Shown one piece after another: positions 19,905 through 38,675 of a stretch of DNA of 64,000 nt (positions are counted from its first letter, which is position 1; every line of letters begins with the position of its first letter). A model generated the notes under the pieces. The model worked only from the letters and a program-made list of their open reading frames with translations, was not told where the DNA came from and searched no databases. Source of the stretch: Thermomicrobium sp. CFH 73360 (GTDB lineage: Bacteria; Chloroflexota; Chloroflexia; Thermomicrobiales; Thermomicrobiaceae); contig NZ_JAMSLS010000001.1 in assembly GCF_023806465.1 (NCBI RefSeq), positions 496,001 to 560,000 of the forward strand, in the 5' to 3' direction. The position numbers and the translations under genes are program-made.

Positions 19905-21298
19905 CGTTCACGCTCCTCGCTTGGTACTCGCAGTGCCTCGACAATGTCTTCCATTCGCATCCCACGTGCTCCTTTGACCAGCACAAAATCCCCCGGCCGT
20001 AACGTCTCACGCAACACCGCGACAAGCTCCCGACGATCCTCCGTTGCGTAGACCCGTTCTGGTGCAAGCCCTGAGGCAATCGCTTCCTCAGCGATCCAGC
20101 GCGCGCGTGGTCCCAGCGTGTAGAGACGATCGACAACCGCGGCCGCCCGCCGCCCGACCATCCGATGCCCTTCTTCCTCGTACCAACCAAGCTCATACAT
20201 GTCCCCAAAGACTGCGATGCGGCGCTGGGCCGGAATTTCCTGCAACAGCGAGAGCGCCGCCATGCAGGACGCTGGACTCGCGTTGTAGGTGTCATCCAGC
20301 AACGTCGCGCCGTTGACACCCGGCACGGTTAGAAGCCGTACCTGCACTCGTGGCTCACGGAAACCGGAGAGCATCTCGTCGAGCGTCAAGCCAAACTCGT
20401 AGCCGACGGCGATGGCAGCCAGGGCGTGATGCACGCTATGTTGCCCGAGCAGCGGCAAGCGCACCCGGTTCCGTTCTCCGTAGGCGACGAGATCGAACAA
20501 GATTCCCTCGAGCCCACGGCTTTCAATATCCTCCGCCCGCACATGGCAATCTGGGGAGAGCCCGTACCAGAGGACCCGCGCTCGCGTCCGCTCAGCCATC
20601 AGCCGGACGCGGAAATCGTCCCCATTGAGGAAAGCAACACCATCCTCCGGCAATGATTCCGGGAGTTCGGCGATACTTTGCGCGATGCGCTCCAGCGTTC
20701 CCATGCGTGCCAAATGTGCGTGCGATACATTGGTCACGACACCGATCCGCGGCTCTGCCAGGGCACACAGTTCGCGCACTTCGCCCAACCGATACGCTTC
20801 GCCAAACTCGAGCACGACGACATCGGTATCGGGATTCATGTCCAGAAGATCGAGGGCCACCCCCACATCGGTGTTAAAACTCCCTCGGCTGCGTACTACT
20901 TGAAAACGCTGGGCGAGGACTGAGGCGATGGCTTCTTTCGTACTCGTCTTACCGACGCTCCCCGTGACCGCGACCACTGGGACAGCAAAGAGTCGACGCC
21001 AGTAGCTCGCTAGCCGGAGCAATGCAGCCAAGGAATCGTCCACGACGATCAGCGGCACACCGAGACTTGCAAACTCATTCGCCCGCCGCGCCTCGACAAG
21101 CACAGCGGCGGCACCCCGCCGCACGGCATCGGGGATGAAATCGTGACCATCATGCCGCTCGCCCCGCAGCGCGACAAAGAGGTCGCCTGGCTCGACCGAG
21201 CGCGAGTCGTGCCAGACACGCCGGAAGAGCAAGTCGGGTGCGGCCGAACCTCGCAAGACGCCTTTTGTCCCCTCGAGCACGTCCCGCAGGCCGATCAT
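19901..21298 (-). CDS. murF: UDP-MurNAc-tripeptide D-alanyl-D-alanine ligase
   Basis: MurF attaches D-Ala-D-Ala to complete the cytoplasmic precursor. In the 465 residues are DSRSVEPGDLFVALRGERHDGHDF at the N-terminus (the MurF/MurE N-domain motif), the ATP loop VTGSVGKTSTKE and DDTYNASPASCMAAL. GDMYELG follows, the MurF hallmark near the C-terminal domain. It lies directly after ftsI; the murE gene expected between ftsI and murF is missing. ATG at 21298 overlaps the ftsI stop. Confidence 0.95.
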   Translation of the reverse strand: MIGLRDVLEGTKGVLRGSAAPDLLFRRVWHDSRSVEPGDLFVALRGERHDGHDFIPDAVRRGAAAVLVEARRANEFASLGVPLIVVDDSLAALLRLASYWRRLFAVPVVAVTGSVGKTSTKEAIASVLAQRFQVVRSRGSFNTDVGVALDLLDMNPDTDVVVLEFGEAYRLGEVRELCALAEPRIGVVTNVSHAHLARMGTLERIAQSIAELPESLPEDGVAFLNGDDFRVRLMAERTRARVLWYGLSPDCHVRAEDIESRGLEGILFDLVAYGERNRVRLPLLGQHSVHHALAAIAVGYEFGLTLDEMLSGFREPRVQVRLLTVPGVNGATLLDDTYNASPASCMAALSLLQEIPAQRRIAVFGDMYELGWYEEEGHRMVGRRAAAVVDRLYTLGPRARWIAEEAIASGLAPERVYATEDRRELVAVLRETLRPGDFVLVKGARGMRMEDIVEALRVPSEERER

Positions 21299-23022
21299 GG
21301 CCGTCCCCCTTCTCCCGCCACGCTGTCAACTGGCTGGGACGGTGGAATCCCATACAGCAAGAGCAGCTGCCGAAAAACTTCGGCGAACGCTGGGCCGGCG
21401 GCCCGCTCACCCCAAGGCGATCCCTTGGGTCGATCGATCTTGACCAACACACAAAACCGCGGGTTCTCGACTGGTCCATACCCGATCACCGAGGCGATGG
21501 TTGCCCCCTCACCGCGCTCATAACCATGTGGCCCTGGAATTTCCGCCGTGCCCGTCTTCGCAGCGATCCGGTACCCCGGGATACGAAAGCGTGTCGAGTA
21601 GCTGTCCATCACCTCCGCGAGCATCTCACTGAGCGTCCGTGCTGTCTCCTCACGGATAACTCGTCGTACCGTGGTCGGCTCAGTCACTTGGATTCGCTGC
21701 CCATCCCGGATCTCCTGCACAATGTAGGGCCGCATCAACACGCCACCGTTCGCGATTGCCGAAACAGCAACCACCAGCTGCAATGGCGTCACCGCAATCC
21801 CCTGCCCAAACGCGTTTGTATAGAAGGTTGTCAACGACCAGCCCGCTGTCCCCGGTCGGTTGACAATCCCCTCCACCTCACCCGGCAAATCGACTCCGGA
21901 CGGTTGCCCGAAGCCAAACCGCTCGACTCCGTCATAGAATCTCTCAGGCCCAAGCCGGTCAACGACCTCCATGGCGCCGACATTGCTCGAGTGAATCAAG
22001 ACCTCTGTCATCGTTTCCAGACCAAACTCCTGGAGCAAAGCATTGTAGATACGTGTCCCGTCAGGGAGTTCCCGGTAGGTACCTCCATCGACGACGGTCT
22101 GCGGGGTCACAACGCCAGCGTCGAGCCCGAGCGCCATGGTGATCACCTTGAAAGTTGAACCCGGTTCGTAGGTCGCGCTGACCGAGCGATTGACAAACAG
22201 GGCCGGATCACTAACGGCCGTGAACCGGTTTGGGTCAAATGAGGGGCGATTAGCCATCGCCAAGATCGCCCCAGTCCGAACATCCATGACGATAATGGTT
22301 CCTCCAGCAGCCCGCTGCTCCTGGATCGTGCGCTCGAGCACCGATTCAGCAAGATATTGCACCGCACTATCGATCGTCAGGACGAGCGTTGCGCCGTCTT
22401 TCGGTGGGCTCCAGGAGCTTTGCCCCAACGCGATGACATTCCCAGCAAGATCGCGCTCCCCAACGAGCTGGCCTGGAATGCCCCCAACGACACTGTCATA
22501 TGCCGCCTCTAGCCCGTAGGCTCCGCGATATTCCCAGTTGACGAAGCCAAGCACCTGCGAGGCGAAATCACCCATCGGGTAGGCTCGCTTCGGTTCTGGA
22601 TCCAACACGATACCTGGGAGTTCCAAAGCACGAATTTGCGCCGAGACCTCCGGATCGAGCTGACGTTGAAGCACGACCCACTCCCGGCCGGGTTGTGTCA
22701 GCGCCGCTTCAATGTCCTCGGCCGAACGGCCAATCAACGGTGCAAGGAGTTGCGCCGTCCGATGTGGATCCTCCACCTGACGGACGATTGCCGAGACACG
22801 ATCAGCCGGTATATCGGTTGCCAGCACACGTCCCCTGGCATCGAGAATATCCCCGCGGTGCGCTGGGACGATATCCTCCCGATAACGGAACGCTTCGGCA
22901 CGCTGGGCGAGTACCGGCCCTTGGAGCACAGCAAACGACACCACCCGGTAGCCGACCGCGCCGCTGAACAGCACAAAGGCAGCCAAGAGCACACGGAGAC
23001 GACGCGCCGAGAGCCCGTTCAT
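21295..23022 (-). CDS. ftsI: Peptidoglycan transpeptidase FtsI (class B PBP)
   Basis: FtsI is the septal D,D-transpeptidase acting with FtsW. The 575 residues hold one N-terminal membrane helix (about 8-30), a dimerisation/pedestal domain beginning RGDILDARGRVLATDI, and the penicillin-binding domain. Active-site motifs are STFK (EPGSTFKVITM), SSN (IHSSNVGAMEV) and KTGT (AAKTGTAEIPG). No PASTA repeats follow. ATG at 23022 overlaps the stop of the upstream ftsL-like gene. Confidence 0.95.
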   Translation of the reverse strand: MNGLSARRLRVLLAAFVLFSGAVGYRVVSFAVLQGPVLAQRAEAFRYREDIVPAHRGDILDARGRVLATDIPADRVSAIVRQVEDPHRTAQLLAPLIGRSAEDIEAALTQPGREWVVLQRQLDPEVSAQIRALELPGIVLDPEPKRAYPMGDFASQVLGFVNWEYRGAYGLEAAYDSVVGGIPGQLVGERDLAGNVIALGQSSWSPPKDGATLVLTIDSAVQYLAESVLERTIQEQRAAGGTIIVMDVRTGAILAMANRPSFDPNRFTAVSDPALFVNRSVSATYEPGSTFKVITMALGLDAGVVTPQTVVDGGTYRELPDGTRIYNALLQEFGLETMTEVLIHSSNVGAMEVVDRLGPERFYDGVERFGFGQPSGVDLPGEVEGIVNRPGTAGWSLTTFYTNAFGQGIAVTPLQLVVAVSAIANGGVLMRPYIVQEIRDGQRIQVTEPTTVRRVIREETARTLSEMLAEVMDSYSTRFRIPGYRIAAKTGTAEIPGPHGYERGEGATIASVIGYGPVENPRFCVLVKIDRPKGSPWGERAAGPAFAEVFRQLLLLYGIPPSQPVDSVAGEGGRP

Positions 23023-23474
23023 GGCTCATCCTCCGCTTGTGCGCGTCCGATACCAAGGAGTGCGTCGTTCGTGCGTTCCCACCACGAAGCACGTGGTGGT
23101 TGCGTCGGGATCGGGGTCGGTAGTGCTGGCGAGCGCTCAACCTGGAGCGGCTCGACTCGCCGTAGTGGCACCATGCCATACTCGCGCGTGGCAAGCTCGT
23201 AAATCCGGGCGAGTGACTGGCGTCGGGCCAATTCATAACGCAGGGCTGCCGCCTCAAGCGCGACGGAATCACGCTGGTGTTGGAGCGCGGTGAGTTCGTA
23301 CCCGAGTTCGACCACGCGACTCGTCTGCTCAAGGTACAGCAGGCTGACGCCGGCCAGGGCTCCTACCAAGACCAGCGTCAACGCAAGCCAAGCCCGACCG
23401 CGCCGTCGCGCCAATGGACGGCCAACCGGTTGCGGACGAGGGCCCGTGACCGACCGTACACCTTCCGCCACCAT
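23019..23474 (-). CDS. ftsL: FtsL-like cell division protein
   Basis: This is a 151-residue bitopic protein: a basic N-terminal tail, one membrane helix (about 29-48, WLALTLVLVGALAGVSLLYL), then a coiled-coil region with ELGYELTALQHQRDSVALEA. A proline-rich tail rich in PTPIPTQPP follows. The topology, size and place between rsmH and ftsI are those of FtsL; sequence conservation in this family is low. ATG at 23474 begins 4 bp after the rsmH stop, with GAGGTG immediately before it; the longer open frame overlaps rsmH. Confidence 0.8.
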   Translation of the reverse strand: MVAEGVRSVTGPRPQPVGRPLARRRGRAWLALTLVLVGALAGVSLLYLEQTSRVVELGYELTALQHQRDSVALEAAALRYELARRQSLARIYELATREYGMVPLRRVEPLQVERSPALPTPIPTQPPRASWWERTNDALLGIGRAQAEDEP

Positions 23475-23478
23475 CACC

Positions 23479-24471
23479 TCACACCCGCTCCGCAGCACGC
23501 AGTCGGGCACTCCGGCTGCGCGGATTTCGTACGACTTCCTCCGCTGACGGGCGTACTGCCCGCGGCGTCAGGATGCGCAAGCGCGGCACATGCCCACAGA
23601 CACAGATCGGGGTTCCCGGCGGGCAGAGACAAGCCGCCGCCTCCCGCCGCATGAACTGTTTGACGATTCGGTCTTCTAAGGAGTGGAAGGCGATCACAAC
23701 CAGCCGCCCACTCGGCCGGAGTAACGCGACCGCCTGTTCGAGACCGGCGACAAGGGCCTCCAGTTCCTCGTTGACCACGATCCGCAGTGCCTGAAAGACC
23801 CGTGTGGCTGGATGAATGCGCTCGCGCCGCGCACCCACGACCCGCACAACGAGTTCAGCCAGCTGCGTCGTCGTCTCAATCGGTCGGCGCGCCCGCTCCG
23901 CGACGATTGCACGCGCGATGGCTCGCGCCCGCGGCTCCTCACCGTAACGCCAGAAAAGGTCAGCGAGTTCCTCAACCGACCAGGTATTGACGATCACCGC
24001 CGCCGGAGTTCCCTGTGTCGGATCGAACCGCATATCGAGGGGGCCAGGGAGTTGGAACGAAAACCCGCGCCGCGGGTCGGCAAGCTGGTCGGAAGACAGG
24101 CCAAGGTCGAAGAGTATCCCGTCGACTGCATCGAACCCGTATTGACGGGCCAATCGCGCCAGTTCACGGAAATTTCCGTGACAAGGAATGAGCCGACCAG
24201 AGTATCGCGCGGCAAGGGCTTGAGCACGCTCGACGGCCGCTGGATCAGCGTCCAGGGCAAGCAGACGACCATCCGGCGCACTCGCTTCGAGGATGGCACG
24301 AGCGTGGCCGCCGCCTCCGAACGTGCCATCGATATAGCGTCCGCCGGGGCGCGGTGCCAAGTAGGTCAACACCTCGTGCAAGAGTACCGGCTCATGGATC
24401 GTCGTCGACGCCGACTTGTCTGCGAGGGGAAGAGCGTTTTCGGGCATGGCTTGCCCGGCTCCGTTCGGCAT
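23479..24471 (-). CDS. rsmH: 16S rRNA (cytosine(1402)-N(4))-methyltransferase
   Basis: RsmH (MraW) methylates N4 of C1402 in the 16S rRNA decoding centre. The 330 residues include [13 protein letters not shown], the SAM loop [26 protein letters not shown] and the late motifs [14 protein letters not shown] and [14 protein letters not shown]. The catalytic domain and the inserted helical domain are complete. ATG at 24471 shares one base with the mraZ stop (TGATG). A second in-frame ATG eight codons later is possible. Confidence 0.95.
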
Positions 24472-24899
24472 CAGATCAGGCTCGCCAGGCGCTGAGCGAT
24501 CGATGGGCCCTCAGCTGCCAGAAGTTCGGCCTGCGTAGCCCATCCCTCCGGGCTCCAGATTTCGATATAGGAGTGCACTCCCACGACGATGGCTTCACGG
24601 TCGAGCCCGGCGTACTCCCGGAGTTCGGGTGGGATGAGAATGCGCCCCTGACGGTCGAACTCGACGATTGTCGCCTCAGCAAAGACCATACGACGAAATG
24701 CGCGCGCGTCCGGGTCGCTGATGGAGAGTGAGGACACTTTCTCGGCTAGCGGCTGCCAGGAGGCCATTGGGTAGAGCGTAAGACAGCGATCGATCCCGCG
24801 CGTGAGTACCCCTTGACCACGAAACGCCTCGCGGAAGCGAGCCGGAATGGCCAGCCGCCCTTTCTCATCGATCGCATGGGTGTATCGCCCGAGAAACAC
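24471..24899 (-). CDS. mraZ: Transcriptional regulator MraZ
   Basis: MraZ is the AbrB-like DNA-binding protein that controls the dcw operon by binding direct repeats upstream of itself. The 142 residues contain two SpoVT/AbrB-type repeats: [14 protein letters not shown] near the N-terminus and [18 protein letters not shown] in the second half, each with the family's D-x-x-G-R pattern. The start is GTG at 24899 ([11 protein letters not shown]), with GAGGG 9 bases upstream. The predicted operator repeats lie just upstream (24963-24998), indicating autoregulation. Confidence 0.95.
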
Positions 24900-25028: not shown

Positions 25029-25604
25029 GCACCTTCTGTCTACTATCGCCGATGTTCGTACAGACTGTCCGGACACATCTGCAGTGCGATGCGCCACCAC
25101 ACGTTCCCGTGTCGGCCGCCACCGACATCCATCGAATCCCGCGAGCTTTCGTCGCGCCGCAGAGAGCAGGCTCCACCGCAGCCATCCAGATGTCTTTGCT
25201 AACCGATAATCACCGGTGTGACAGACCCTCTCCCGAAGCAAGTCTCGCTGATCCTGGGCGATCTGTTTCGGCATCAATCCACCAAAGTGACCGACGCCAG
25301 CAGCTCAGACACTACCTGCACGTCGCAAAAGGAACGATGCGCCCCACGACCACCTCATTCGGCGCAACTCCCTGACTCCTCCGCATCTCACCTCACGTGG
25401 AGGTGCCGGATGCTCCGGAATGGACATCAGCAGGACGTCCAAGAGGACGAGAGCACGGCGCAATTGTTGGGCGCTGGGCGAGATCATTCCAGAACACAGT
25501 GTGCTCTCCTTACAAGCAGCGGTCATGCCATCGGGGCGGGAGTCCCTGTCAGGCACCCCGCTCCATTCCGCCGAGATTGACTTTCTCGACTCACGGCAGG
25601 TGAC
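25029..25604. other. Noncoding divergent region upstream of mraZ
   Basis: About 580 bases show no convincing gene in any frame. Visible elements are a 10-base palindrome TGTCCGGACA at 25066-25075, flanked by CAGA and TCTG, and a hairpin CACCTC-ACGTG-GAGGTG at 25389-25405. Base composition is similar to the flanks. Open frames here lack Shine-Dalgarno signals and recognisable sequence. Confidence 0.45.
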
Positions 25605-25632
25605 TTGATTTTGGCGTTTTTCTTGCTACATT
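25605..25632 (+). promoter_or_regulatory. Candidate promoter of the five-gene exported island
   Basis: TTGATT (25605-25610) and TACATT (25627-25632) are 16 bases apart within an AT-rich patch that contrasts with its surroundings. It lies 40 bases before a strong AAGGAGGT Shine-Dalgarno and the ATG at 25672. Confidence 0.45.
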
Positions 25633-25671
25633 GGCGATAGCAGCAGCCACTGGCAAGGAAGGAGGTCGCCC

Positions 25672-26541
25672 ATGCAGCAGCGATTGCGACGATGGATGAT
25701 CCCCATTCTTGTCGCGGTGCTGCTCGCCAGTGCCTTTCTGTCCGGGGTATGGGCCGGACTCAGGCAGCACCGTGTGCTCGCCAATATTCCCATCCAGGCA
25801 GTACCAGAGATCCCAGGCACTGTTCAGCAGAAAGCGATTGAGACCGCTCGTTTTCACCCGCGTATCGCTGCAGCGTTGAGACAGATCCCTGAGGAACACA
25901 TTCGCGGTATTGTTGTCGGCGTTGCCAATGAATCTGGCACACTGCCAACCCAGCTGGATGGCGTCTACATCCAGTTCGACTTTACGACTCCGCAACGGAT
26001 CCGTGCGGAGTGGCTCGACCGATCAGGACGAAGCTATACCGCAACGTTTCGTCACGTCGGGGGTATTTGGGCGGCCTTTCGCCTGCCGGAGTACGAGCTC
26101 CGCTGGTTCGAGCCGACGCCATTCCCGGCCTATGAGCCCGAAGATCCGGCGGAACTTCCTGATTATGTCCACGAGCCGGAACGCTCACGAATCATGACAA
26201 TTGTCCAGCAAACCACGTGGCTGGAGCAACTGCTTGCCGGCCAGGAGTTTCGCGTGACCGGTATTTGGTGGCAGCTCACGGGCAAGGCTGCCCTGGTCGA
26301 CCTCACACTGTCACGTCCTGTCACGGTTCCGCTTGAGACACCTCTGCTCGAGCCTTGGGGAGCCGGTACAGCACCGTGGCCACCAACTGTCACCACCTTC
26401 CGCGAGTGGCTTAAAGCCACAGATCCAAATGAGCTTGCCCGAATCGAAGCGGAGGGAGGCATTACGTTCGAAAGTGGACTCACCCTGATAGTGGACCTGG
26501 AACGGGGGGAAGCATACCTTTTCATCGGCTCTGGGCGGTGA
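25672..26541 (+). CDS. Exported or membrane-anchored protein of unknown function
   Basis: No family recognised for this 289-residue protein. An N-terminal basic stretch and hydrophobic helix (about 9-29, MIPILVAVLLASAFLSGVWA) indicate a signal anchor or signal peptide without a clear cleavage or lipobox. The rest is soluble, rich in aromatic and proline residues, with a low-complexity patch FEPTPFPAYEPEDPAELPDY around residues 144-164. One cysteine-free extracytoplasmic domain is likely. ATG at 25672 is preceded by a near-perfect AAGGAGGT. It is the first gene of a run of five closely spaced plus-strand genes. Confidence 0.7.
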   Translation: MQQRLRRWMIPILVAVLLASAFLSGVWAGLRQHRVLANIPIQAVPEIPGTVQQKAIETARFHPRIAAALRQIPEEHIRGIVVGVANESGTLPTQLDGVYIQFDFTTPQRIRAEWLDRSGRSYTATFRHVGGIWAAFRLPEYELRWFEPTPFPAYEPEDPAELPDYVHEPERSRIMTIVQQTTWLEQLLAGQEFRVTGIWWQLTGKAALVDLTLSRPVTVPLETPLLEPWGAGTAPWPPTVTTFREWLKATDPNELARIEAEGGITFESGLTLIVDLERGEAYLFIGSGR

Positions 26542-26551
26542 GCAGGGTCGA

Positions 26552-27208
26552 ATGATGCTCCTTCGGCTAGCGATCCTTGGTTGGACAATGGCTCTCTTCT
26601 TCACGCTCGGCTTGGCGACTGGGCAAGCAGGTTCCACGAGCACTTTTACGACGATCAGTGTCGGAGGCGACCAGTTCTACAACTGGGATAACCTCTCGAC
26701 CTCCTGCGCCTGCTCCAACAACGTAGACTGGCCGGTGACTGTCATCTTTCGGCAAAACGCCTCAGTCAACAGTGCGAAAAGCGCCGTCGGGCTCAGCCTG
26801 GTCGGATCATCGATGTACCATCGGGGCAACGACGGTGCTGGCTGGTTCTGGGATAGCGACAGCGGCTTGAAAGCCCAGTTTGATGGAGCAAGTCAACCTG
26901 AGCGCTGGGACTACCACCATATGCGTTTCTACGCTCCTCCAGCAACTGATTACTCCTACAACACGAGTTGGGGGCGATATGTCCTTGCCACGGCCCACAT
27001 CGACGTCGACGAAGGCTGGCCATCCGCTCAATTCGGTTGGAGCGAAACAGCTGAAGAGTGGTTCGCCGCGCGTCTGCGAAATCGAGGCTATTCGGTGAGT
27101 GAAGACGCGTATTGGATCGCCAATAATGACAGCTGGCCTTCTGGGCGATGGGCATCTAACCACTATTACCTAAACAACGGTTATGCAACGTTTGTTAGCA
27201 TTCCATGA
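26552..27208 (+). CDS. Secreted protein of unknown function
   Basis: This 218-residue protein has a typical signal peptide: MMLLRLAILGWTMALFFTLG with AxA-type cleavage near ATGQAG. The mature part is unusually rich in Trp, Tyr, Ser and Asn and has one clustered pair of cysteines (STSCACSNN) near its start. Repeated W-x-x and Y-x-N patterns (SYNTSWGRY, SNHYYLNNGY) suggest a compact beta-rich secreted domain. No family was recognised. It starts 10 bp after the previous gene, with a second in-frame ATG immediately after the first. Its 3' end overlaps the next gene by 26 bp. Confidence 0.7.
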   Translation: MMLLRLAILGWTMALFFTLGLATGQAGSTSTFTTISVGGDQFYNWDNLSTSCACSNNVDWPVTVIFRQNASVNSAKSAVGLSLVGSSMYHRGNDGAGWFWDSDSGLKAQFDGASQPERWDYHHMRFYAPPATDYSYNTSWGRYVLATAHIDVDEGWPSAQFGWSETAEEWFAARLRNRGYSVSEDAYWIANNDSWPSGRWASNHYYLNNGYATFVSIP

Positions 27209-28097
27209 GATTCTCGGCTCCCTGAAGAAATCGCTGTTTCATGGTGGAGGAGGGCGAGAAACGACCTCCCTCCTGCTCATCTTGGCCTTCCTGTCTTCAC
27301 AGGCAGCATTTTCCCACGCTGAGTCAGCGTCGAGCGACCTCATCTGGTCGCTCGGCGCTCCTCTCCACATCGATGCTCCAGCAACCGGTCGGTATGTTCT
27401 GGGAACCGTCAGCCGAAGACCGCCGTTCGAGGCTTCCTCGATGCACCTGTTCTGGCTCGAGTACGAGCTAGAGCTGAGCATCACGGGCCCTGTTGGCGAA
27501 CTCCGACTCTGGGACGATTGTGAAGGCTGGAGCGCCACTCATCTCCGCCTGCGACTGCTCCGGGATCGAGCAGGACAACCAGTCATCACTTGGGATACGC
27601 TTGACTTGTTTTCTGGTATTCGTGTCGGCTACGTCATGGAAAAGCATCTGCGGATCACTGTTCGCAACATCACACCAGATCTTTGGGGACATAAGCCATG
27701 TACCCTCACCCTGGTTTATGCACGTGAGGGCTTCTTGTCCCTGCGCTCGCTCCACGTGCTACGAGGAGGATTCGCCGCTCTGCCCACCTCATCTCCCACA
27801 TATCGCGTTAGCGTCAGCCTTCCCCAAGGACCACTCACAGAGGGCAAACCTTTTCGTCTCTCAGTCCTTGCCTGGAATCGCTCCTCGATCTCTCCGCCGC
27901 TGGTGAGAGTGAGTCTTGTGCTTGAAGACCGCCACCTGGAGCCACTCGGACCAACGGTGTTCGTACAACAGGGCAAACTCGTCCGCCATTCCTTTTGGAT
28001 TCTCCCGCGAGCACCCGGAACCTACCGAGTTGGCGTTCAAGCGGTTGGCCCTGGCGGCGGTGAAACCTTCTGGTTTGGGATCCAGATTATCTCTTAG
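27183..28097 (+). CDS. Exported protein with probable C-terminal Ig-like domain
   Basis: No family recognised for this 304-residue protein. After about 27 residues comes a hydrophobic segment (TSLLLILAFLSSQAAFSHAE) resembling a signal peptide with AxA cleavage. The C-terminal ~100 residues (from YRVSVSLPQGPLTEGKPF to GTYRVGVQAVGPGGGETFWF) have the alternating beta pattern of an immunoglobulin-like or filamin-like sandwich. The ATG at 27183 lies inside the preceding gene and has a weak ribosome site, so the true start may be a later codon nearer the hydrophobic segment. Confidence 0.6.
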   Translation: MQRLLAFHEILGSLKKSLFHGGGGRETTSLLLILAFLSSQAAFSHAESASSDLIWSLGAPLHIDAPATGRYVLGTVSRRPPFEASSMHLFWLEYELELSITGPVGELRLWDDCEGWSATHLRLRLLRDRAGQPVITWDTLDLFSGIRVGYVMEKHLRITVRNITPDLWGHKPCTLTLVYAREGFLSLRSLHVLRGGFAALPTSSPTYRVSVSLPQGPLTEGKPFRLSVLAWNRSSISPPLVRVSLVLEDRHLEPLGPTVFVQQGKLVRHSFWILPRAPGTYRVGVQAVGPGGGETFWFGIQIIS

Positions 28098-28121
28098 AGC
28101 AGGTAGGAAGGAGGGAGAGCC

Positions 28122-28643
28122 ATGCAGTTCGTCTCAAGGAGTTCTCACTTTCTCACGCTCCTCATTGGAGCATGGGCCGCATGGCTGTGGGGTTGGGCCG
28201 TTGGCCTCCTGTTCACCTGGCTCCGCGGACCCCGTGGCGATACTGACCTTCGACTCATCGCCCTCTGGTTTGCTGTACTCGGGGTCGCGCCGTTCCTGAC
28301 CGCAGTCGCACGATGGCGAAGTGTCCGGTCGCGCGGTTTCTGGGTCGGTCTTGGCGTGCTTAGCCTGCTCGTCTTCGCGAGTCCTGCGCTGAGCTGGTTG
28401 GCCGTCACGCTCGTGAGCAGTTTCCGCACCGGCAGCTGGGACGGCGTCTTTGCACCACTCCTCACCTGGGACTGGGTCCGTAACTTCCTCATTCGGCCGC
28501 TCAGTTGGCGTGACTGGCTTGGCTGGCTGGCTTGGGGCCTGTGGAGCCAGCTCGTGCTTGCGCTCCACGCATTCCTCTCTGCAGCTTGGGGCGTAGGCAA
28601 GAAGACACCCCCCGGCACGCCCGTATCCGTGCGTGACCGGTGA
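28122..28643 (+). CDS. Polytopic membrane protein of unknown function
   Basis: The 173 residues contain about four hydrophobic helices (roughly 10-33, 45-62, 72-98 and 130-155). They are exceptionally rich in tryptophan, for example IGAWAAWLWGWAVGLLFTWL and WRDWLGWLAWGLWSQ. The C-terminus KKTPPGTPVSVRDR is probably cytoplasmic. No family was recognised. The Shine-Dalgarno GGAAGGAGGGAG precedes the ATG, and the gene starts 24 bp after its upstream neighbour, supporting translation as part of the same operon. Confidence 0.65.
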   Translation: MQFVSRSSHFLTLLIGAWAAWLWGWAVGLLFTWLRGPRGDTDLRLIALWFAVLGVAPFLTAVARWRSVRSRGFWVGLGVLSLLVFASPALSWLAVTLVSSFRTGSWDGVFAPLLTWDWVRNFLIRPLSWRDWLGWLAWGLWSQLVLALHAFLSAAWGVGKKTPPGTPVSVRDR

Positions 28644-28652
28644 GCGAGACAC

Positions 28653-29084
28653 ATGGGAATGGCTCTCAGGGTGGCACAGCGTCTCACCGCCCTCATCACT
28701 CTTGGCTGGGCCTGCTGGCTTGCAGCGTGGTGCGGCTGGCTCCTTACGGCACCGTCCTGGATTCGTCCAGCTGCTGCATGGCCCGAGTGGCTTGTTGCCC
28801 TCGTCTCCGGGCTCCTCGCCCTCCTGGCCGCAACGAACGCCTTTCTCCTCTGGCAGGGGACATCGTTGTCCGTGCTCTCCTTGTTGGCCGTAGGACTCGC
28901 TGCCCTGGGCATGAGCGGTCCCATCTCTCTCTGGCTTTGGCGCTTTGCCTGGAGTGGTCGCCTCCTCTGGCTCGGTCCGCTGCCTCCTGTGGGCCTCCCG
29001 CCAGGAACGACAGAACTGGCCCTTCTCTTTGGCACGCTGGCGCTCCTCTTTGCACGCCGCATGCCAACGGAGCGCACCGAATAA
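28653..29084 (+). CDS. Small polytopic membrane protein of unknown function
   Basis: The 143-residue protein has four predicted membrane helices (about 12-33, 45-68, 73-97 and 118-136). Its composition, rich in Trp and Leu, is similar to the preceding gene, and the two could be distant paralogues or subunits of one membrane complex. No family was recognised. It starts 9 bp after the preceding stop and is the last gene of the five-gene unit; a hairpin lies about 200 bases downstream. Confidence 0.62.
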   Translation: MGMALRVAQRLTALITLGWACWLAAWCGWLLTAPSWIRPAAAWPEWLVALVSGLLALLAATNAFLLWQGTSLSVLSLLAVGLAALGMSGPISLWLWRFAWSGRLLWLGPLPPVGLPPGTTELALLFGTLALLFARRMPTERTE

Positions 29085-31511: not shown

Positions 31512-32924
31512 ATGGCCGGGCCGGTCGTCGTTCCAGTATTGCCCACGTATCTCGACCCCGAACGAGTGACGCATTGTGCCATTCCCTATGGCCGGGCGAT
31601 TGCTCAGCGCCTGGGGAGCGAGCTCGTCCTCCTCTCGGTCGTCGAGATCACCGAGTCACTTCGCTCGTACTTGGAAGCGGAGGGTGAGCAGGTCGAGCGA
31701 CTCATTCGGCGCTGGCTGGAGCAGCGCCGGGAAGCGATCGACCGTCTCGCTGCAGTTGTGGACGGTGTACGGACGCGTGTCGAGGTTGTCCTTGGGGAAC
31801 CCGCGCAAGAGATTGTCGCCTTTGCCAACCAGCATCAGGCTGCCGTCATCGTCATGAGCAGCCACGGCCGGCTCGGTGTCGCCCGACTGCTGGTTGGGAG
31901 TGTGACATTCAGCGTGATGCAGCGTGCACAGCAACCAGCACTTGTCGTTCGTGCCCGGGTTCCCGTACCGGCCCCCAATGCACCGGTGAGCTTTTCACCG
32001 GTCCTGGTCCCACTTGACGGCTCATCGCTCGCCGAAGAGGCGATCGACACCGCTCTGGCAGTCCTGGGTCAAGGCCATGAACCGTTGGAGCTCCATCTCT
32101 TCCACGTCTTGACCAATGACGAGGAGCCAGTTCGTTGGGAGGACTACCTTCAGAGCATCGCACAGCGTCTTCAGGACCGTGGTTATTCCGCTACCTGGAG
32201 CCTAGGACACGGGCCAGTGGCCGAGACGATCGCGCAAGAAGCCGTCGAACGACGCGCTGGTCTCATCGCGATGGGCACGCACGGTCTGAGTGGCGTCCGG
32301 CGCGTCCTCCTTGGGTCGACAGCCGAGCACGTGCTCCACGCGACGACCGTTCCGCTGCTCCTGCATCGTCCGCGCGCTGTCCGCCGGGCACTGGAAGAAC
32401 AGCACGCTGCTGCCGGACCGCTCCGCGCACGCGACATCATGACCCCGAACCCGATCACTGTCGGGGCTGACGCAACGCTCGAGCAGGTCGCAAAGCTCAT
32501 GCTGGACCATCAGATCGGCGCTGTTCCGGTCGTTGACTCAGAGGGGCGTCTCCTCGGGTTGATTCGCGAAGAGGACTTCCTGGCACGGGAGCGCCCGATC
32601 CCCTTCTCGGCATTCCGGGCACCGCAACTCTTCGGACGGTGGGTAACTCCGGAGCGGCTCGAGGAGATCTATGCGGAGGCACGCTCGTTGCAGGCTGGTG
32701 AGGTCGCCCACCCGCCAGAGGTGACCGTTACCGAGGAGACGCCTCTCAGCGAGCTCGCTGAACACATGGTCGCGGCCAATGTCCGCCACGTGCCAGTGCT
32801 CCGCGATGGGAAGCTCGTCGGTATCGTGACGCGGCACGATGTCCTCAAAGCGGTCGCCCACGGCAGTACACCTCGCGGCGGTGCTGGAGCACCGAGCGAC
32901 CAACATCTTCCTGCGACGGACTGA
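31512..32924 (+). CDS. Universal stress protein with two USP and two CBS domains
   Basis: The 470-residue soluble protein has four modules. The first USP domain (about 5-148) ends VMSSHGRLGVARLLVGSV, and the second (about 160-290) carries AMGTHGLSGVRRVLLGST. Both have the G-x(2)-G-x(9)-G(S/T) nucleotide-binding pattern. A CBS pair follows (about 305-365, DIMTPNPITVGADATLEQ, and 400-455, PPEVTVTEETPLSEL). USP and CBS domains bind adenine nucleotides, so an energy- or stress-sensing role is plausible. It is 79 bp upstream of two tandem P-type ATPases and is probably cotranscribed with them. Shine-Dalgarno GGAGGGAGGGA precedes ATG 31512. Confidence 0.88.
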   Translation: MAGPVVVPVLPTYLDPERVTHCAIPYGRAIAQRLGSELVLLSVVEITESLRSYLEAEGEQVERLIRRWLEQRREAIDRLAAVVDGVRTRVEVVLGEPAQEIVAFANQHQAAVIVMSSHGRLGVARLLVGSVTFSVMQRAQQPALVVRARVPVPAPNAPVSFSPVLVPLDGSSLAEEAIDTALAVLGQGHEPLELHLFHVLTNDEEPVRWEDYLQSIAQRLQDRGYSATWSLGHGPVAETIAQEAVERRAGLIAMGTHGLSGVRRVLLGSTAEHVLHATTVPLLLHRPRAVRRALEEQHAAAGPLRARDIMTPNPITVGADATLEQVAKLMLDHQIGAVPVVDSEGRLLGLIREEDFLARERPIPFSAFRAPQLFGRWVTPERLEEIYAEARSLQAGEVAHPPEVTVTEETPLSELAEHMVAANVRHVPVLRDGKLVGIVTRHDVLKAVAHGSTPRGGAGAPSDQHLPATD

Positions 32925-33003
32925 CCGGTCTGAGCGCGAATTTGTGTCATCGCTGCAGAGAGGCTCGACTGAGGACAAAGGCTCGAGGAAGAGGAGAGCC
33001 TCG

Positions 33004-35823
33004 ATGACGCATCCGCTGCATGGCAGTACGCCTCCGGTGGGTACAGAGACCCAAGCATGGCATGCCTTGCCAGCGGAGCGAGTCCTTGAGCTTCTCGGCA
33101 GCACGGAGGACGGACTCTCAGCGGCTGAGGCGAAGCACCGGCTGAGTACGTACGGCCCGAACCAGCTTGAAACCGCTCCGCCACCAAATCCGCTCCTGAT
33201 TTTCCTCCGTGAGTTCCGGAGTCCCTTGATCTATGTGCTCCTGATCGCCGCACTGGTCATCGCGGCGCTCCGAGAGTGGGTCGATACCGCCGCAATCATG
33301 GCAGTCCTGCTCATCAACGCAGCCATTGGAACCTTTCACGAACTCCGCGCTGAGCGCGCTATCCGTTCGCTCATGCAATTCCTCAGTCCACGAGCGCGGG
33401 TGATCCGCGACGGTGAGGAGCAGCATATCCCAGCGCGTGAGCTCGTCCCCGGCGACATCGTGCTCCTCGAGTCCGGGATTCGCGTTCCGGCCGACTTACG
33501 GTTGCTCGCGACGACGGCATTGATGGTTGACGAGTCGGTCTTTACTGGGGAATCCATCCCCGTTGTCAAGCAGATCGAGCCGGTGCCGCCCGACACACCA
33601 CTCGCCGATCGCCGTTCCATGGCCTACCTCGGCACGATCATCACCAGTGGTCGGGGAATCGGTGTCGTTGTCGCCACCGGTCCTGGGACCGAACTCGGCA
33701 AGATTGCCCAGTTAGCGCGGGGTGAGGCGCAGCCGGAGACACCGTTGCAACGTCAAATGGCGCGCTTTGCTCGTCTCGTTGCCCTTTTCGTCGTCATCGG
33801 GGTCGGAGTGATCAGTGCTTTCGGACTGCTGCGCGGCGATCCCTTGGTTCTCCTCTTCAAATTCGCGGTCGGCGCAGCTGTCGCAATCGTCCCCGAAGGG
33901 CTCCCGATCGTCCTGACACTGGTCTTCGCTGTGAGTGCCCAACGCATGGCTCGACGCCGTGCCATCGTCCGCCAGCTCGCCGCCGTCGAGACACTCGGAA
34001 GTACCACAGTCATTGGGTCAGATAAGACGGGGACCCTCACCGAGAACCGGATGACCGCTCACTCCGTCTGGGCGGCCGGAGAGCTTCTCAGCCTGACCTC
34101 GCCACACGATGGAAGTAAGCACGCCCAGACACTCCACGTGCCAGTTCACGACCTCCACAGGTACTCGTTCTGGCATCTCCCTCCAGCAGCCCGCGTCCTG
34201 CTCACTGGCGTGCTGGCCAATGAGGCGACACTCGTGCCGAGGGAAGAAACCGAACAGGAACTGGAGGGAATCGGCGATCCGACCGATATCGCCCTCTTGG
34301 TCGCGGGTGCTCATGCTGGCCTCGTTCGTGAAGAAGTCGAGCAGGTGTACCCCATCGTCGCGGTCGTCCCCTTCGAACCGGAACGGCGCTTCGCTGCTGT
34401 GGTCTCGCGGGTCGGGGACAACCTGTACCTGTTCGCCAAAGGCGCACCGGAACGCATCATGGAGATGTGCTCGAGTTGGTCCACTCCCACGGGGACGGCG
34501 CCGCTGGATGCAGATCAGATTCTTGCTGCAGCCCAAGATCTTGCCGCTCAGGGGCTCCGCGTCCTCGGTTTCGCCGCTGGTCCGATTGCACCGGAGACTG
34601 CTGAACGGCTCGAGGAACTGCTGCAGCCGCATGACCTCACCTTCCTCGGGCTCGTCGGCCTGTGGGATCCGCCCCGTCCGGGCGTGCGGGAAGCGATCGC
34701 ACAGTGTAACGAGGCGGGCATTCGCGTCGTGATGATTACCGGCGACCATGCGGCGACTGCTGCGGCGATTGCCGAGCATCTTGGGATTGCTGCACGCCAG
34801 AGTGGGGTTCTAACTGGTCGCGAACTCCAACGATTGTCGGACGAGGAACTCCGTGAAGCAGTCCGACGCGTCTCGGTCTTTGCCCGAGTCGAACCGGAGC
34901 AGAAACTGCGCATCGTGCGAGCCCTGCAGGCGAACGGCGAGACGGTCGCGGTTACCGGCGACGGGGTCAACGATGCACCAGCACTCCGCGCCGCCGAAAT
35001 CGGTGTCGCGATGGGGAAGAGCGGAACGGACGTCGCACGGGAAGCCGCCGATATCGTCCTGACCGACGACAACTTCGTGACGATTGTCGCGGCTGTCGAA
35101 GAGGGGCGAGGGGCCTTCGACAACCTTCGCAAAGCCACGTTCTTCCTTATCTCCACCGGCGCCGCGATGATCTTTATCCTACCCTTCGCGATCCTAGCCA
35201 ACTGGCCTCTCCCTTTCTATCCTGCACAATTGCTCTGGCTCAACTTGGTCACCAACGGCCTTCAAGACGTTGCCATGGCATTCGAACCCAAAGAGCCCGG
35301 CCTCATGCGCCGCCGGCCCCGGCCGCGCCGGGAGGGAATCCTTTCCCCGCTGCTGTGGGAACGCACTCTGCCGAGCGGGCTCGTGATGGCAGCTGGAACC
35401 CTTTACCTCTTCGACTGGACACTCCGGGCTACCGGTTCACTCGATCTCGCACGGACAGTGGCACTCACGACGATGGTCATCTTCCAGAACTTCCAGGTGG
35501 GGAACGCACGGTCCAGCACCCGTTCCCTCTTCCGGATGAGTCCGATCTCGAACCGCGTGCTCTTTGTTGCTGTCCTCGCAGCATTCGGCATCCACGTGGC
35601 TGCACTCTATCTCCCAATTACCCAGTTCGTGCTCCGCGTTGAGCCGATCCCACTCGAGATCTGGCCGCGCATCATTGCCATCGCTGCGACGATCCTCGTG
35701 ACGGTGGAGCTGCACAAGCTAATCCGTCGTCGCTGGCCGCGTCGAGACTCCTGGGAGGCAAGTCACACCCAGACGCCCGAGACTCCAGTGCAACCAGCGG
35801 CGACTGCACGCGCTCTCAACTGA
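33004..35823 (+). CDS. P-type cation-transporting ATPase (first of tandem pair)
   Basis: This is a 939-residue P2-type pump with an N-terminal cation ATPase domain, actuator motif (DESVFTGESIPV), phosphorylation site DKTGTLT (Asp340), KGAPER in the nucleotide domain and TGDGVNDAPALR. It has about ten membrane helices. In TM4 the PEGLP motif is intact (Glu298). Relative to the SERCA Ca2+ sites, TM5 Glu771 is replaced by Met (LISTGAAM) and TM6 Asp800 by Asn (NLVTNGLQD). The transported ion is therefore not predictable; Ca2+, Mn2+ or a monovalent ion are all open. ATG 33004 has a GAGGAAGAGGAG site upstream; homology does not extend before it. Confidence 0.88.
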   Translation: MTHPLHGSTPPVGTETQAWHALPAERVLELLGSTEDGLSAAEAKHRLSTYGPNQLETAPPPNPLLIFLREFRSPLIYVLLIAALVIAALREWVDTAAIMAVLLINAAIGTFHELRAERAIRSLMQFLSPRARVIRDGEEQHIPARELVPGDIVLLESGIRVPADLRLLATTALMVDESVFTGESIPVVKQIEPVPPDTPLADRRSMAYLGTIITSGRGIGVVVATGPGTELGKIAQLARGEAQPETPLQRQMARFARLVALFVVIGVGVISAFGLLRGDPLVLLFKFAVGAAVAIVPEGLPIVLTLVFAVSAQRMARRRAIVRQLAAVETLGSTTVIGSDKTGTLTENRMTAHSVWAAGELLSLTSPHDGSKHAQTLHVPVHDLHRYSFWHLPPAARVLLTGVLANEATLVPREETEQELEGIGDPTDIALLVAGAHAGLVREEVEQVYPIVAVVPFEPERRFAAVVSRVGDNLYLFAKGAPERIMEMCSSWSTPTGTAPLDADQILAAAQDLAAQGLRVLGFAAGPIAPETAERLEELLQPHDLTFLGLVGLWDPPRPGVREAIAQCNEAGIRVVMITGDHAATAAAIAEHLGIAARQSGVLTGRELQRLSDEELREAVRRVSVFARVEPEQKLRIVRALQANGETVAVTGDGVNDAPALRAAEIGVAMGKSGTDVAREAADIVLTDDNFVTIVAAVEEGRGAFDNLRKATFFLISTGAAMIFILPFAILANWPLPFYPAQLLWLNLVTNGLQDVAMAFEPKEPGLMRRRPRPRREGILSPLLWERTLPSGLVMAAGTLYLFDWTLRATGSLDLARTVALTTMVIFQNFQVGNARSSTRSLFRMSPISNRVLFVAVLAAFGIHVAALYLPITQFVLRVEPIPLEIWPRIIAIAATILVTVELHKLIRRRWPRRDSWEASHTQTPETPVQPAATARALN

Positions 35824-35876
35824 CCTCGTTTGGCACCAATGATGTGTGGGAAGACACACACCCAGCGGAGCGTCTC

Positions 35877-38675
35877 GTGCGGAGTATAGAAGCGGTGCAA
35901 GGGCCCGACAGCTCGGCGAGTCATGAACCTGCCTGGCACGCGCAAACGGCAGCCGACGTTATTGGCGCTCTCAAGAGCTCACCAAACGGGCTCTCCATCG
36001 CCGAGGTGCGGAAACGTCTTCACCAGTATGGCCCGAACCAGATCGCCGAAGTATCACCGTCTAACCCGCTGGCCATCGTTGCCCACCAATTCGCCAGTCC
36101 CCTGATTGTCACATTGGCGCTGGCTGCGCTCGTCGCCGGCCTTCTCGGCGAATGGATCGATGCAGCAGTGATCGTCGCCGCTCTCGTGATCAATGCCTTG
36201 TTCGGGTTCCTCCAGGAATGGCGCGCCGAATCTGCCATCCGTTCACTCCTGCGCTATCTTGCGCCTAAGGCCCGCGTTCTCCGTGACGGCCTCGAACAGA
36301 TCGTCGATAGCAGGGAACTTGTACCCGGGGACATCGTGTTGCTCGAGTCGGGCGTTCGCGTACCGGCCGATCTTCGACTCCTTGCCACCACCGCTCTGCT
36401 GATCGACGAATCGGTGCTCACCGGCGAATCAGCCCCGGTCGCAAAGCGGCCCGATCCGGTCGCCGCTGACACGCCGGTCGCCGATCATACCTGCATGGCA
36501 TACCTCGGGACCGTGGTAACGAGTGGTCGAGGGCGAGGCATCGTCGTCGCCACGGGAAGCCGCACCGAGGTGGGTCGCGTCGCTGCCATCGCCCAACAGG
36601 AAATCGCACCCCCTACCCCCCTGCAGCAGCACCTCGCGCGCTTTGCGCGGACGGTGGCTGTGCTCGTGCTGCTGGGGATCTTCAGCATTGGAGCCTTCGG
36701 CCTTCTCCGTGGTGACGAGCTCGGAACAATTCTCGTCTTCGCCGTTGGCGCGGCTGTGGCGATCGTCCCCGAAGATCTTCCGGTTATTCTCACGATCGTT
36801 TTCGCCGTCAGCGTCCAGCACATGGCACGCCGGAACGCGATCGTCCGGCATCTCCCGGCCGTTGAGACACTTGGGAGTACGACTGCGATCGGCTCCGATA
36901 AGACGGGCACGCTCACAGAAAACCGCATGACCGTCCGGTTCCTCTGGGCTGCAGGCCAGCGGAGGGAAATCGGGTCGGGTTCTCTGAAACACCTGACCGA
37001 GTCACCAGCTGTTCATCTCTCAGCTCAGGCATCCGGTTTCGAAGCGCTTTGGAAAACGCTTGAACCTCATACACTCGTGCTCCTTGCTGGCGTCCTGGCC
37101 AACGAAGCCCAACTCACTCCAGCCCCAGAGCTCGATCGCGAAGGGGTCGGCGATCCGATCGACATTGCTCTACTTGTCGCGGCACGGCAGGAACTGGCTG
37201 ACCCGAACAGGCTTCGTGAGCAGTTCCCCTTGCTGGCGATGCTCCCGTTTGAACCAGAACGGCGGTTCGCCGCCGCGCTCTGCACCGTTGGAGAGCAACC
37301 GACGGTCTTCGTGAAGGGAGCTCCGGAGCGCGTCGTCGAGATGTGCACATGCTGGCTCAGCAGCACCGGCCCTGCTCCACTCGCCCCACAAGAGATCGCG
37401 GACGCGGCTGCCGAGCTCGCGCAAGCCGGTTTTCGCGTCCTCGGGTTTGCCGCAGGGGCTGTGGAGGGAAGCGACGAATCGGTCTTCGCGCAGCTCAGCG
37501 AGCTCGTCTTTCTCGGGCTGGTTGCCTTCTGGGATCCACCACGCCCAGGCGTGAAGGAGTCGATCGCCCAGTGTCATGCAGCCGGTATCCGTGTGCTGAT
37601 GATTACCGGTGATCACGCCGGAACCGCCGCGGCGCTCGCAGCCGAACTCGGTATTGCCCCGCCCGGAAGCCCTGTCCTCACCGGACGGGAGCTTGCCGAG
37701 CTCGACGAGGCACAACTCCGCGAACGGGTTCGCACTGTCAACGTGTACGCCCGCATCGAGCCGGAGCAGAAATTGCGCATTGTGAGGGCACTGCAAGCTC
37801 TCGGCGAAACCATTGCGGTCACGGGTGACGGCGTGAACGACGCCCCTGCTTTACGGGCAGCTGATATCGGCGTCGCAATGGGTAAAAGTGGAACCGATGT
37901 TGCGCGTGAAGCCGCCGACATCGTGCTTGCTGACGACAACTTCGTCACGATCGTGGCGGCGGTTGAGGAAGGTCGTGCTGCGGCAGACAACCTGCGTAAA
38001 GCGACCTTCTTCCTGCTCTCCACTGGCGCGGCGACCGCGTTCCTTTTGCCCTTGGCTCTCTTCCTTGGGTGGCCGCTCCCTCTTTATCCGGCACAGCTTC
38101 TCTGGCTCAACCTGGTCACCAACGGCGTACAGGATATCGCGCTCGCCGTCGAACCGAAGGAGCCAGATCTTTTGAGACGTCGCCCGCGTCCGCGCCGGGA
38201 GGGGGTCCTTTCGATGCTCCTCTGGGAGCGCATCGCCTTGAGCGGTCTCGTCATGGCGCTCGGCACACTTTGGATCTTCCAGTGGACGCTGGAGCGTTTT
38301 GGCTCACTCGACCTCGCCCGGACGGTTGCACTTACAACAATGGTCCTCTACCAGACATTCCAAGTCGGCAATGCGCGCTCCAGCGGGCGTTCAGTCTTCC
38401 AGCTTCATCCCTTGTCCAACCGCTTCCTCTTCCTCGCCGCAGCTGCAGCATTGCTGCTCCACATCCTGGCCCTTCACACACCACTTCTGCAGTTCGTGCT
38501 CCGGGTTCAGCCAATCCCATTGGAACTCTGGCCACGCATGGTCGTGCCGGCAGCGAGCATCGTCGTCGCTGTGGAACTGCACAAGATGATCCGCCGGCGC
38601 TGGCCATACCCTTCCTGGGAGCTGAGCAGTACTCTGGCCTCCTCCACGACGGCAACTCCATCATCCGATAGCTGA
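35877..38675 (+). CDS. P-type cation-transporting ATPase (second of tandem pair)
   Basis: This is a close paralogue of the preceding gene, alignable along its whole length. It has DESVLTGESAPV, DKTGTLT (Asp341), KGAPER, TGDGVNDAPALR and the same C-terminal helices. The TM4 motif is PEDLP instead of PEGLP, placing a second acid beside Glu299. The TM5 position equivalent to SERCA Glu771 is Thr (LLSTGAAT), and TM6 reads NLVTNGVQD. The differences suggest the two pumps carry different ions or have different affinity. GTG 35877 is preferred because GGAG lies 6 bases before it; GTG 35844 would add 11 residues without a ribosome site. Confidence 0.86.
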   Translation: MRSIEAVQGPDSSASHEPAWHAQTAADVIGALKSSPNGLSIAEVRKRLHQYGPNQIAEVSPSNPLAIVAHQFASPLIVTLALAALVAGLLGEWIDAAVIVAALVINALFGFLQEWRAESAIRSLLRYLAPKARVLRDGLEQIVDSRELVPGDIVLLESGVRVPADLRLLATTALLIDESVLTGESAPVAKRPDPVAADTPVADHTCMAYLGTVVTSGRGRGIVVATGSRTEVGRVAAIAQQEIAPPTPLQQHLARFARTVAVLVLLGIFSIGAFGLLRGDELGTILVFAVGAAVAIVPEDLPVILTIVFAVSVQHMARRNAIVRHLPAVETLGSTTAIGSDKTGTLTENRMTVRFLWAAGQRREIGSGSLKHLTESPAVHLSAQASGFEALWKTLEPHTLVLLAGVLANEAQLTPAPELDREGVGDPIDIALLVAARQELADPNRLREQFPLLAMLPFEPERRFAAALCTVGEQPTVFVKGAPERVVEMCTCWLSSTGPAPLAPQEIADAAAELAQAGFRVLGFAAGAVEGSDESVFAQLSELVFLGLVAFWDPPRPGVKESIAQCHAAGIRVLMITGDHAGTAAALAAELGIAPPGSPVLTGRELAELDEAQLRERVRTVNVYARIEPEQKLRIVRALQALGETIAVTGDGVNDAPALRAADIGVAMGKSGTDVAREAADIVLADDNFVTIVAAVEEGRAAADNLRKATFFLLSTGAATAFLLPLALFLGWPLPLYPAQLLWLNLVTNGVQDIALAVEPKEPDLLRRRPRPRREGVLSMLLWERIALSGLVMALGTLWIFQWTLERFGSLDLARTVALTTMVLYQTFQVGNARSSGRSVFQLHPLSNRFLFLAAAAALLLHILALHTPLLQFVLRVQPIPLELWPRMVVPAASIVVAVELHKMIRRRWPYPSWELSSTLASSTTATPSSDS

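What the first reader, a model, noticed from the sequence alone, without database searches (positions are those of the whole stretch)
25672..29084. Five-gene island of unrecognised exported and Trp-rich membrane proteins
Five consecutive plus-strand genes with gaps of 10, -26, 24 and 9 bases follow one AT-rich promoter. The first is a signal-anchored protein and the second a secreted protein rich in Trp, Tyr and Asn. The third is exported with a likely Ig-like domain. The last two are four-helix proteins with exceptional Trp content. None matches a family I know. The pattern of secreted proteins plus two small polytopic membrane proteins fits a dedicated secretion, surface-layer or antagonism system.
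Basis: partly seen in the sequence, partly recalled or inferred. Interest (0 to 1): 0.6.

Follow-up and report, generated by a model that had tools for sequence, protein, structure and literature searches.

The report
Secreted protein with PepSY-like membrane partner
The five genes contain a real, previously unnamed gene pair, shared by heat-loving bacteria and archaea, that makes a secreted protein of unknown fold and a membrane-tethered partner resembling known protease inhibitors; what it does is not yet known.

Summary
In detail: five plus-strand ORFs at 25672-29084 with gaps of 10, -26, 24 and 9 bases and no Pfam, NCBIfam, PADLOC or PHROG family. The single-system idea is partly right. 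The conserved core is genes 1 and 2 (P1-P2). P2 (secreted, ~200 aa, 12 residues invariant among 13 divergent copies) has P1 directly upstream in 22 of 27 inspected loci, in Chloroflexota, Catenulispora, Thermoproteota and a Hydrothermarchaeota MAG. In 349 Thermoproteota genomes all six with a strong P1 match also carry P2 (p = 3e-12). P1 is a membrane-anchored tandem duplication; its confident model (pLDDT 83) lies closest to PepSY folds. P3 joins in four lineages; P5 has a probable T. roseum counterpart; P4 belongs to a family also found elsewhere. P2 is broken in several relatives whose P1 or P3 stays intact. Most likely P2 is a secreted effector or enzyme whose folding or activity is controlled by tethered P1; antagonism is one possible use. 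Function is inferred, not shown. A dedicated secretion machine is unlikely and a surface-layer role unsupported. A suspected relation of P2 to LssY_C failed the profile test.

The parts
25600..25660 (+). AT-rich upstream region, plausible promoter
   Evidence: 40% GC at 25600-25639; TTGAyTTTGG and a T-run shared with HR28; no sigma-70 consensus hit
25672..26541 (+). P1, 289 aa: N-terminal membrane anchor plus two tandem PepSY-like domains, predicted outside the cell
   Evidence: halves homologous, hhalign 97.8%, E 4e-12; AF2 pLDDT 82.7; nearest solved folds mostly PepSY proteins
26552..27208 (+). P2, 218 aa secreted protein of a new family; 12 invariant residues in 13 copies
   Evidence: no library family
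27183..28097 (+). P3, 304 aa exported protein, N-terminal beta-rich domain and possible Ig-like domain; distant relatives end in a membrane anchor
   Evidence: hhalign 91-99% to Hydrothermarchaeota, Dehalococcoidia and Catenulispora relatives; anchors
28122..28643 (+). P4, 173 aa Trp-rich membrane protein; family also found away from the cluster
28653..29084 (+). P5, 143 aa Trp-rich membrane protein, probable counterpart of the last gene of the T. roseum cluster
   Evidence: hhalign 94% once the T. longus relative is added to the P5 profile

Best explanation
The island is a lineage-specific extension of a two-gene module, P1-P2. P2 is exported and works outside the cell; its invariant polar residues (D59, H123, R125, H149, D151, N191) look like a catalytic or metal site, so it is most likely a secreted enzyme-like effector. 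P1 is tethered to the membrane facing outward, and its two PepSY-like domains act as P2's cognate partner, helping it fold or holding it inactive until release, as PepSY propeptides of extracellular peptidases do in cis. P3 would be an anchored or secreted surface adaptor; P4 and P5 accessory membrane proteins, possibly protecting the producer. Shown: gene pairing, conservation, P1 duplication and its model. Inferred: P1-P2 binding, any activity of P2, and the roles of P3-P5.
For: P1 directly upstream of P2 in 22 of 27 inspected loci in bacteria and archaea, usually within about 20 bases or overlapping; T. longus carries P1-P2 twice in tandem. All six Thermoproteota genomes with a strong P1 match carry P2, p 2.9e-12. 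In Thermoproteota the pair stands alone. P1 is a tandem duplication whose model is closest to PepSY proteins, a hypothesis noted before those searches. Archaeal double-PepSY proteins were linked to the same PDB entry 3NQZ and proposed as protease inhibitors (PMC6393860). P2 has 12 invariant residues in 13 divergent copies.
Against: PepSY resemblance is by modest structural scores (Foldseek E 0.011; Z 5.3-5.8, an amine oxidase domain ties); Pfam PepSY is not hit. P2 has no fold, family or activity assigned. P2 lacks a detected P1 in L067 and L080, and G903 has a P1 match without P2. No binding evidence. The co-occurrence test ignores relatedness among genomes.
Confidence: 0.4

Rival explanations
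1. It is a bacteriocin-like antagonism cassette: P2 is a toxin that acts on neighbouring cells, and the producer is protected by small membrane proteins (P4, P5) and/or by P1.
For: P2 is interrupted in HR28, G008, G016, G001, L055, L057 and G612, and in most of these P1 or P3 stays open. In L080 a full P2 is followed by a membrane protein, an orphan P2 C-terminal piece and two more membrane proteins, the three being paralogous. Membrane genes vary by lineage. Precedent: SSV9 B310, a secreted toxin followed by a 3-helix membrane gene, with mutated alleles in relatives (PMC8628083).
Against: P1-P2 occurs without membrane genes in Thermoproteota. HR28 keeps P4 and P5 without P2. Some breaks may be assembly errors. 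PADLOC has no match. No toxicity data. P2 core is conserved rather than polymorphic.
Confidence: 0.3
2. It is a cell-surface or envelope module: P2 and P3 are structural or glycan-binding surface proteins, P1 an assembly factor, P4 and P5 anchors.
For: Secreted aromatic-rich proteins; P3 relatives end in a membrane anchor; in the window the cluster lies next to mraZ-rsmH-ftsL-ftsI; YpmB, a PepSY relative, is modelled with MreC.
Against: Rare and patchy (7 of 400 phylum genomes); other copies have other neighbours; small single-domain P2 without repeats; found in archaea, which lack MreC-type wall synthesis.
Confidence: 0.2
3. P2 is a divergent secreted LssY_C-type domain (PF14067).
For: Similar motif order (D-x-P, H-x-R-aromatic, later D, E before a helix, terminal DG/NG), partly in register in the profile alignment.
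Against: hhalign probability 1.7-2.0%, score 21 against 17 for the reversed control. PF14067 finds nothing in the window's genome or 60 relatives. No solved LssY_C structure by sequence.
Confidence: 0.1
4. Unrelated genes that happen to be adjacent.
For: P4 has relatives outside the cluster; membrane genes differ by lineage.
Against: Synteny of P1-P2-P3 across distant lineages and strict P1-P2 co-occurrence.
Confidence: 0.03

Closest known systems
PepSY-domain proteins (vibriolysin MCP-02 propeptide, YpeB, YpmB) and the archaeal double-PepSY cluster cls.004634
   Same: Predicted fold of the P1 repeats, double domain, extracytoplasmic membrane-anchored arrangement
   Different: No Pfam PepSY match; paired in trans with P2, which is not a known peptidase
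Thermomicrobium roseum megaplasmid cluster TRD_RS14895 to TRD_RS10485
   Same: P1, P2 (63% identity), P3 and a P5 counterpart in one cluster
   Different: A different membrane protein lies between P2 and P3; annotated only as hypothetical proteins
SSV9 B310/C108 toxin pair and sulfolobicin of Sulfolobales
   Same: Secreted protein followed by a small membrane-protein gene in thermophilic archaea (PMC8628083)
   Different: No PepSY-like partner reported there; no P2 match in viral or phage collections; toxicity of P2 untested
LssY_C (PF14067)
   Same: Order of a few conserved residues by eye
   Different: Not supported by profile comparison

Membership tests
PepSY domain proteins (for P1) | Significant match to the Pfam PepSY profile | tested here: not met
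   no PepSY hit for 11 P1 members or 8 archaeal-weighted members
PepSY domain proteins (for P1) | PepSY/cystatin-like helix plus beta-sheet fold | tested here: inconclusive
   confident model; YpeB, vibriolysin propeptide and YpmB among the top five at Z 5.3-5.8, below the level that excludes a common arrangement
PepSY domain proteins (for P1) | Inhibits or chaperones an extracellular enzyme | not testable with these tools
   needs binding or activity assays
LssY_C (for P2) | Profile similarity to PF14067 | tested here: not met
   hhalign 1.7-2.0%; no PF14067 match in the genome
Toxin-immunity cassette | Secreted toxin with activity against target cells | not testable with these tools
   no activity data
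Toxin-immunity cassette | Obligatory adjacent immunity gene | tested here: inconclusive
   variable membrane genes in many loci, none in Thermoproteota, where only P1 could serve
Known anti-phage defence systems | Match to a PADLOC-DB model | tested here: not met
   0 families for all five
Dedicated secretion system | ATPase, channel or pilus component in the cluster | tested here: not met
   none among the five genes or in the archaeal pairs
Ig-like domain proteins (for P3) | Significant match to an Ig-like profile | tested here: inconclusive
   only weak hits in one member each: I42 E 0.0074, Big_8 E 0.16; structure of P3 not predicted

The most novel reading that the evidence does not exclude
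P1-P2 is a new cross-domain module in which a secreted enzyme or toxin of a new family is controlled in trans by a membrane-tethered double-PepSY-like protein, used by thermophilic bacteria and archaea against neighbours or competitors.
Probability: 0.2. Interest if true: 0.8.

Novelty: new variant of a known kind. Interest (0 to 1): 0.5.

Why it matters
P1, P2 and P3 are recurring families without an entry in Pfam or NCBIfam, shared by Chloroflexota, an actinobacterium and archaea, many of them thermophiles. The tight P1-P2 pair turns anonymous hypothetical genes into one testable prediction: a secreted protein and its cognate membrane-tethered PepSY-like partner. If P2 proves toxic, it would add to the very few secreted toxins known from thermophilic archaea and link them to bacteria.

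Tried and rejected
1) LssY_C membership of P2, suggested by motif order: failed profile comparison and the reversed control. 2) Fold of P2: weak AF2 model (pLDDT 60, pTM 0.63), best Foldseek E 2.3, best Z 3.4; a missing match does not show a new fold. 3) A P3-P1 fusion in HR29 (L056 8618-10117): hhalign 0.4% and 3.0%, HMM E 0.014 and 0.009, suggestive only. 4) A distant P2 paralogue in G016 (L018 9199-9765): not recovered by the P2 HMM, dropped. 5) One shared family for all membrane genes: not supported except P5. 6) P2 in viral contigs or phages: none. 8) Chance adjacency: rejected by synteny and co-occurrence.

Full report
Observation. The five ORFs, their strand and their gaps are as described. 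P1 has one N-terminal anchor helix; P2 has a signal-like N-terminus and 6.0% Trp; P4 and P5 have 10.4% and 8.4% Trp and three clear hydrophobic segments each. An AT-rich stretch precedes P1 and shares TTGAyTTTGG with Bacterium HR28, although no sigma-70 consensus was found. None of the five matches Pfam, NCBIfam, PADLOC or PHROGs above cut-off.

Relatives in the family. In Thermomicrobiaceae the cluster recurs in different settings: the T. roseum megaplasmid (P1-P2-4TM-P3-4TM, all 'hypothetical'), Thermalbibacter longus (P1-P2 twice in tandem, then P3, a frameshifted membrane gene and a P5-like gene, plus a second P2-P3 copy on a short contig with part of P1), G008, G016 and HR28. HR28 shares the genes downstream; it keeps P1, P4 and P5 but has a stop in P2 and a deletion that removes the rest of P2 and all of P3.

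Distant relatives. A pattern scan of 84,980 species genomes and profile searches found P2 in Dehalococcoidia, Catenulispora rubra, a Hydrothermarchaeota MAG, Desulfurococcaceae/Acidilobaceae and other Thermoproteota. P1 lies directly upstream in 22 of 27 inspected loci: window; T. roseum; T. longus three; G008; G016; HR28; G134; G540-C59; L057; HR29; L052; L054; L055; Catenulispora; six Thermoproteota. The exceptions are L067, L080, L036 and the remnants L015 and L070; a copy at a contig edge (G1003) and three weak hits were not counted. P1 was recovered in loci not used to build its HMM: Catenulispora 1.6e-9, HR29 2.6e-8, G848 2e-40, second G806 copy 2e-5. Spacing is -8 to 21 bases in the loci tabulated, except T. 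roseum (115) and Catenulispora (47). In the same 349 Thermoproteota genomes, six have a strong P1 match and all six are among the seven with a strong P2 match (hypergeometric p 2.9e-12). One further genome has a weaker P1 match without P2. The test ignores relatedness among the genomes.

P3 and the membrane genes. P3 relatives in Hydrothermarchaeota, Dehalococcoidia and Catenulispora are supported at 98.8, 97.5 and 91.5% probability. P2 and P3 overlap in the window (26 bases), Catenulispora (25) and Hydrothermarchaeota (4). The membrane genes differ by lineage and mostly show no detectable relation; P5 and its T. roseum counterpart reach 94% once the T. longus relative is added. P4 relatives lie elsewhere in the genus, in two cases just downstream of a Sir2-like gene.

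P1. Its two halves are a tandem duplication (97.8%, E 4e-12). The model is confident (pLDDT 82.7). Its nearest solved folds include vibriolysin propeptide (best Foldseek E, 0.011), YpeB (Z 5.8) and YpmB (Z 5.3), all PepSY proteins; an amine oxidase domain ties. PepSY had been proposed from sequence before these searches. The scores are modest and Pfam PepSY is not hit, so P1 is PepSY-like, not a proven member. Archaeal double-PepSY proteins have been linked to the same PDB entry and proposed as protease inhibitors (PMC6393860).

P2. Twelve residues are invariant in 13 divergent copies, including D59, H123, R125, H149, D151 and N191. This suits an active or metal site, but no fold or family could be assigned. 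LssY_C was tested and not supported.

Loss and arrays. P2 is interrupted in HR28, G008, G016, G001, L055, L057 and G612. P1 stays open in HR28, G008, G016, L055 and L057, and P3 in G008, G016 and G001. Assembly error may explain some cases. In L080 a full P2 is followed by a membrane protein, an orphan P2 C-terminal piece and two more membrane proteins; the three membrane proteins are paralogous. P1, P4 and P5 differ from HR28 with dN/dS 0.17-0.25, above the neighbouring mutase (0.04) but constrained.

Mechanism. The best-supported reading is a secreted effector or enzyme (P2) with a cognate tethered PepSY-like partner (P1), to which lineages add a surface adaptor (P3) and membrane accessories (P4, P5). 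Antagonism is the leading specific use, from the loss pattern, the array and the Sulfolobus precedent (PMC8628083), but P1-P2 standing alone in Thermoproteota argues against the membrane proteins as obligatory immunity. Binding, activity and biological role are all untested.

Noticed in passing
window 32839-35823 and 35844-38675 (+): Two adjacent cation-transporting P-type ATPase genes; the HR28 region fetched has a single copy, 90% identical to the second and 64% to the first.
   Followed up: no
window 21295-24899 (-): mraZ, rsmH, ftsL-like and ftsI-like division genes lie divergently just upstream of the cluster.
   Followed up: no
L037 8447-8893, L038 5504-5944: P4-family membrane genes directly downstream of a Sir2-like gene in two other genomes of the genus, away from the cluster.
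   Followed up: partly
L033 11910-18624: Downstream of the T. roseum cluster lie genes annotated as anti-phage (phospholipase D-like, DUF1156, DUF3780, DUF499).
   Followed up: no
L080 3476-7633 (-): Archaeal array: P2, membrane protein, orphan P2 C-terminal fragment, two paralogous membrane proteins.
   Followed up: partly
L036 4912-7996: Beside the P2-like gene of G090: a protein with a borderline I36 inhibitor/crystallin match (E 3e-4) and another with a weak PepSY match (E 0.019).
   Followed up: no
L056 8618-10117: 500-aa HR29 protein directly after P2 with marginal similarity to both P3 and P1, possibly a fusion.
   Followed up: partly
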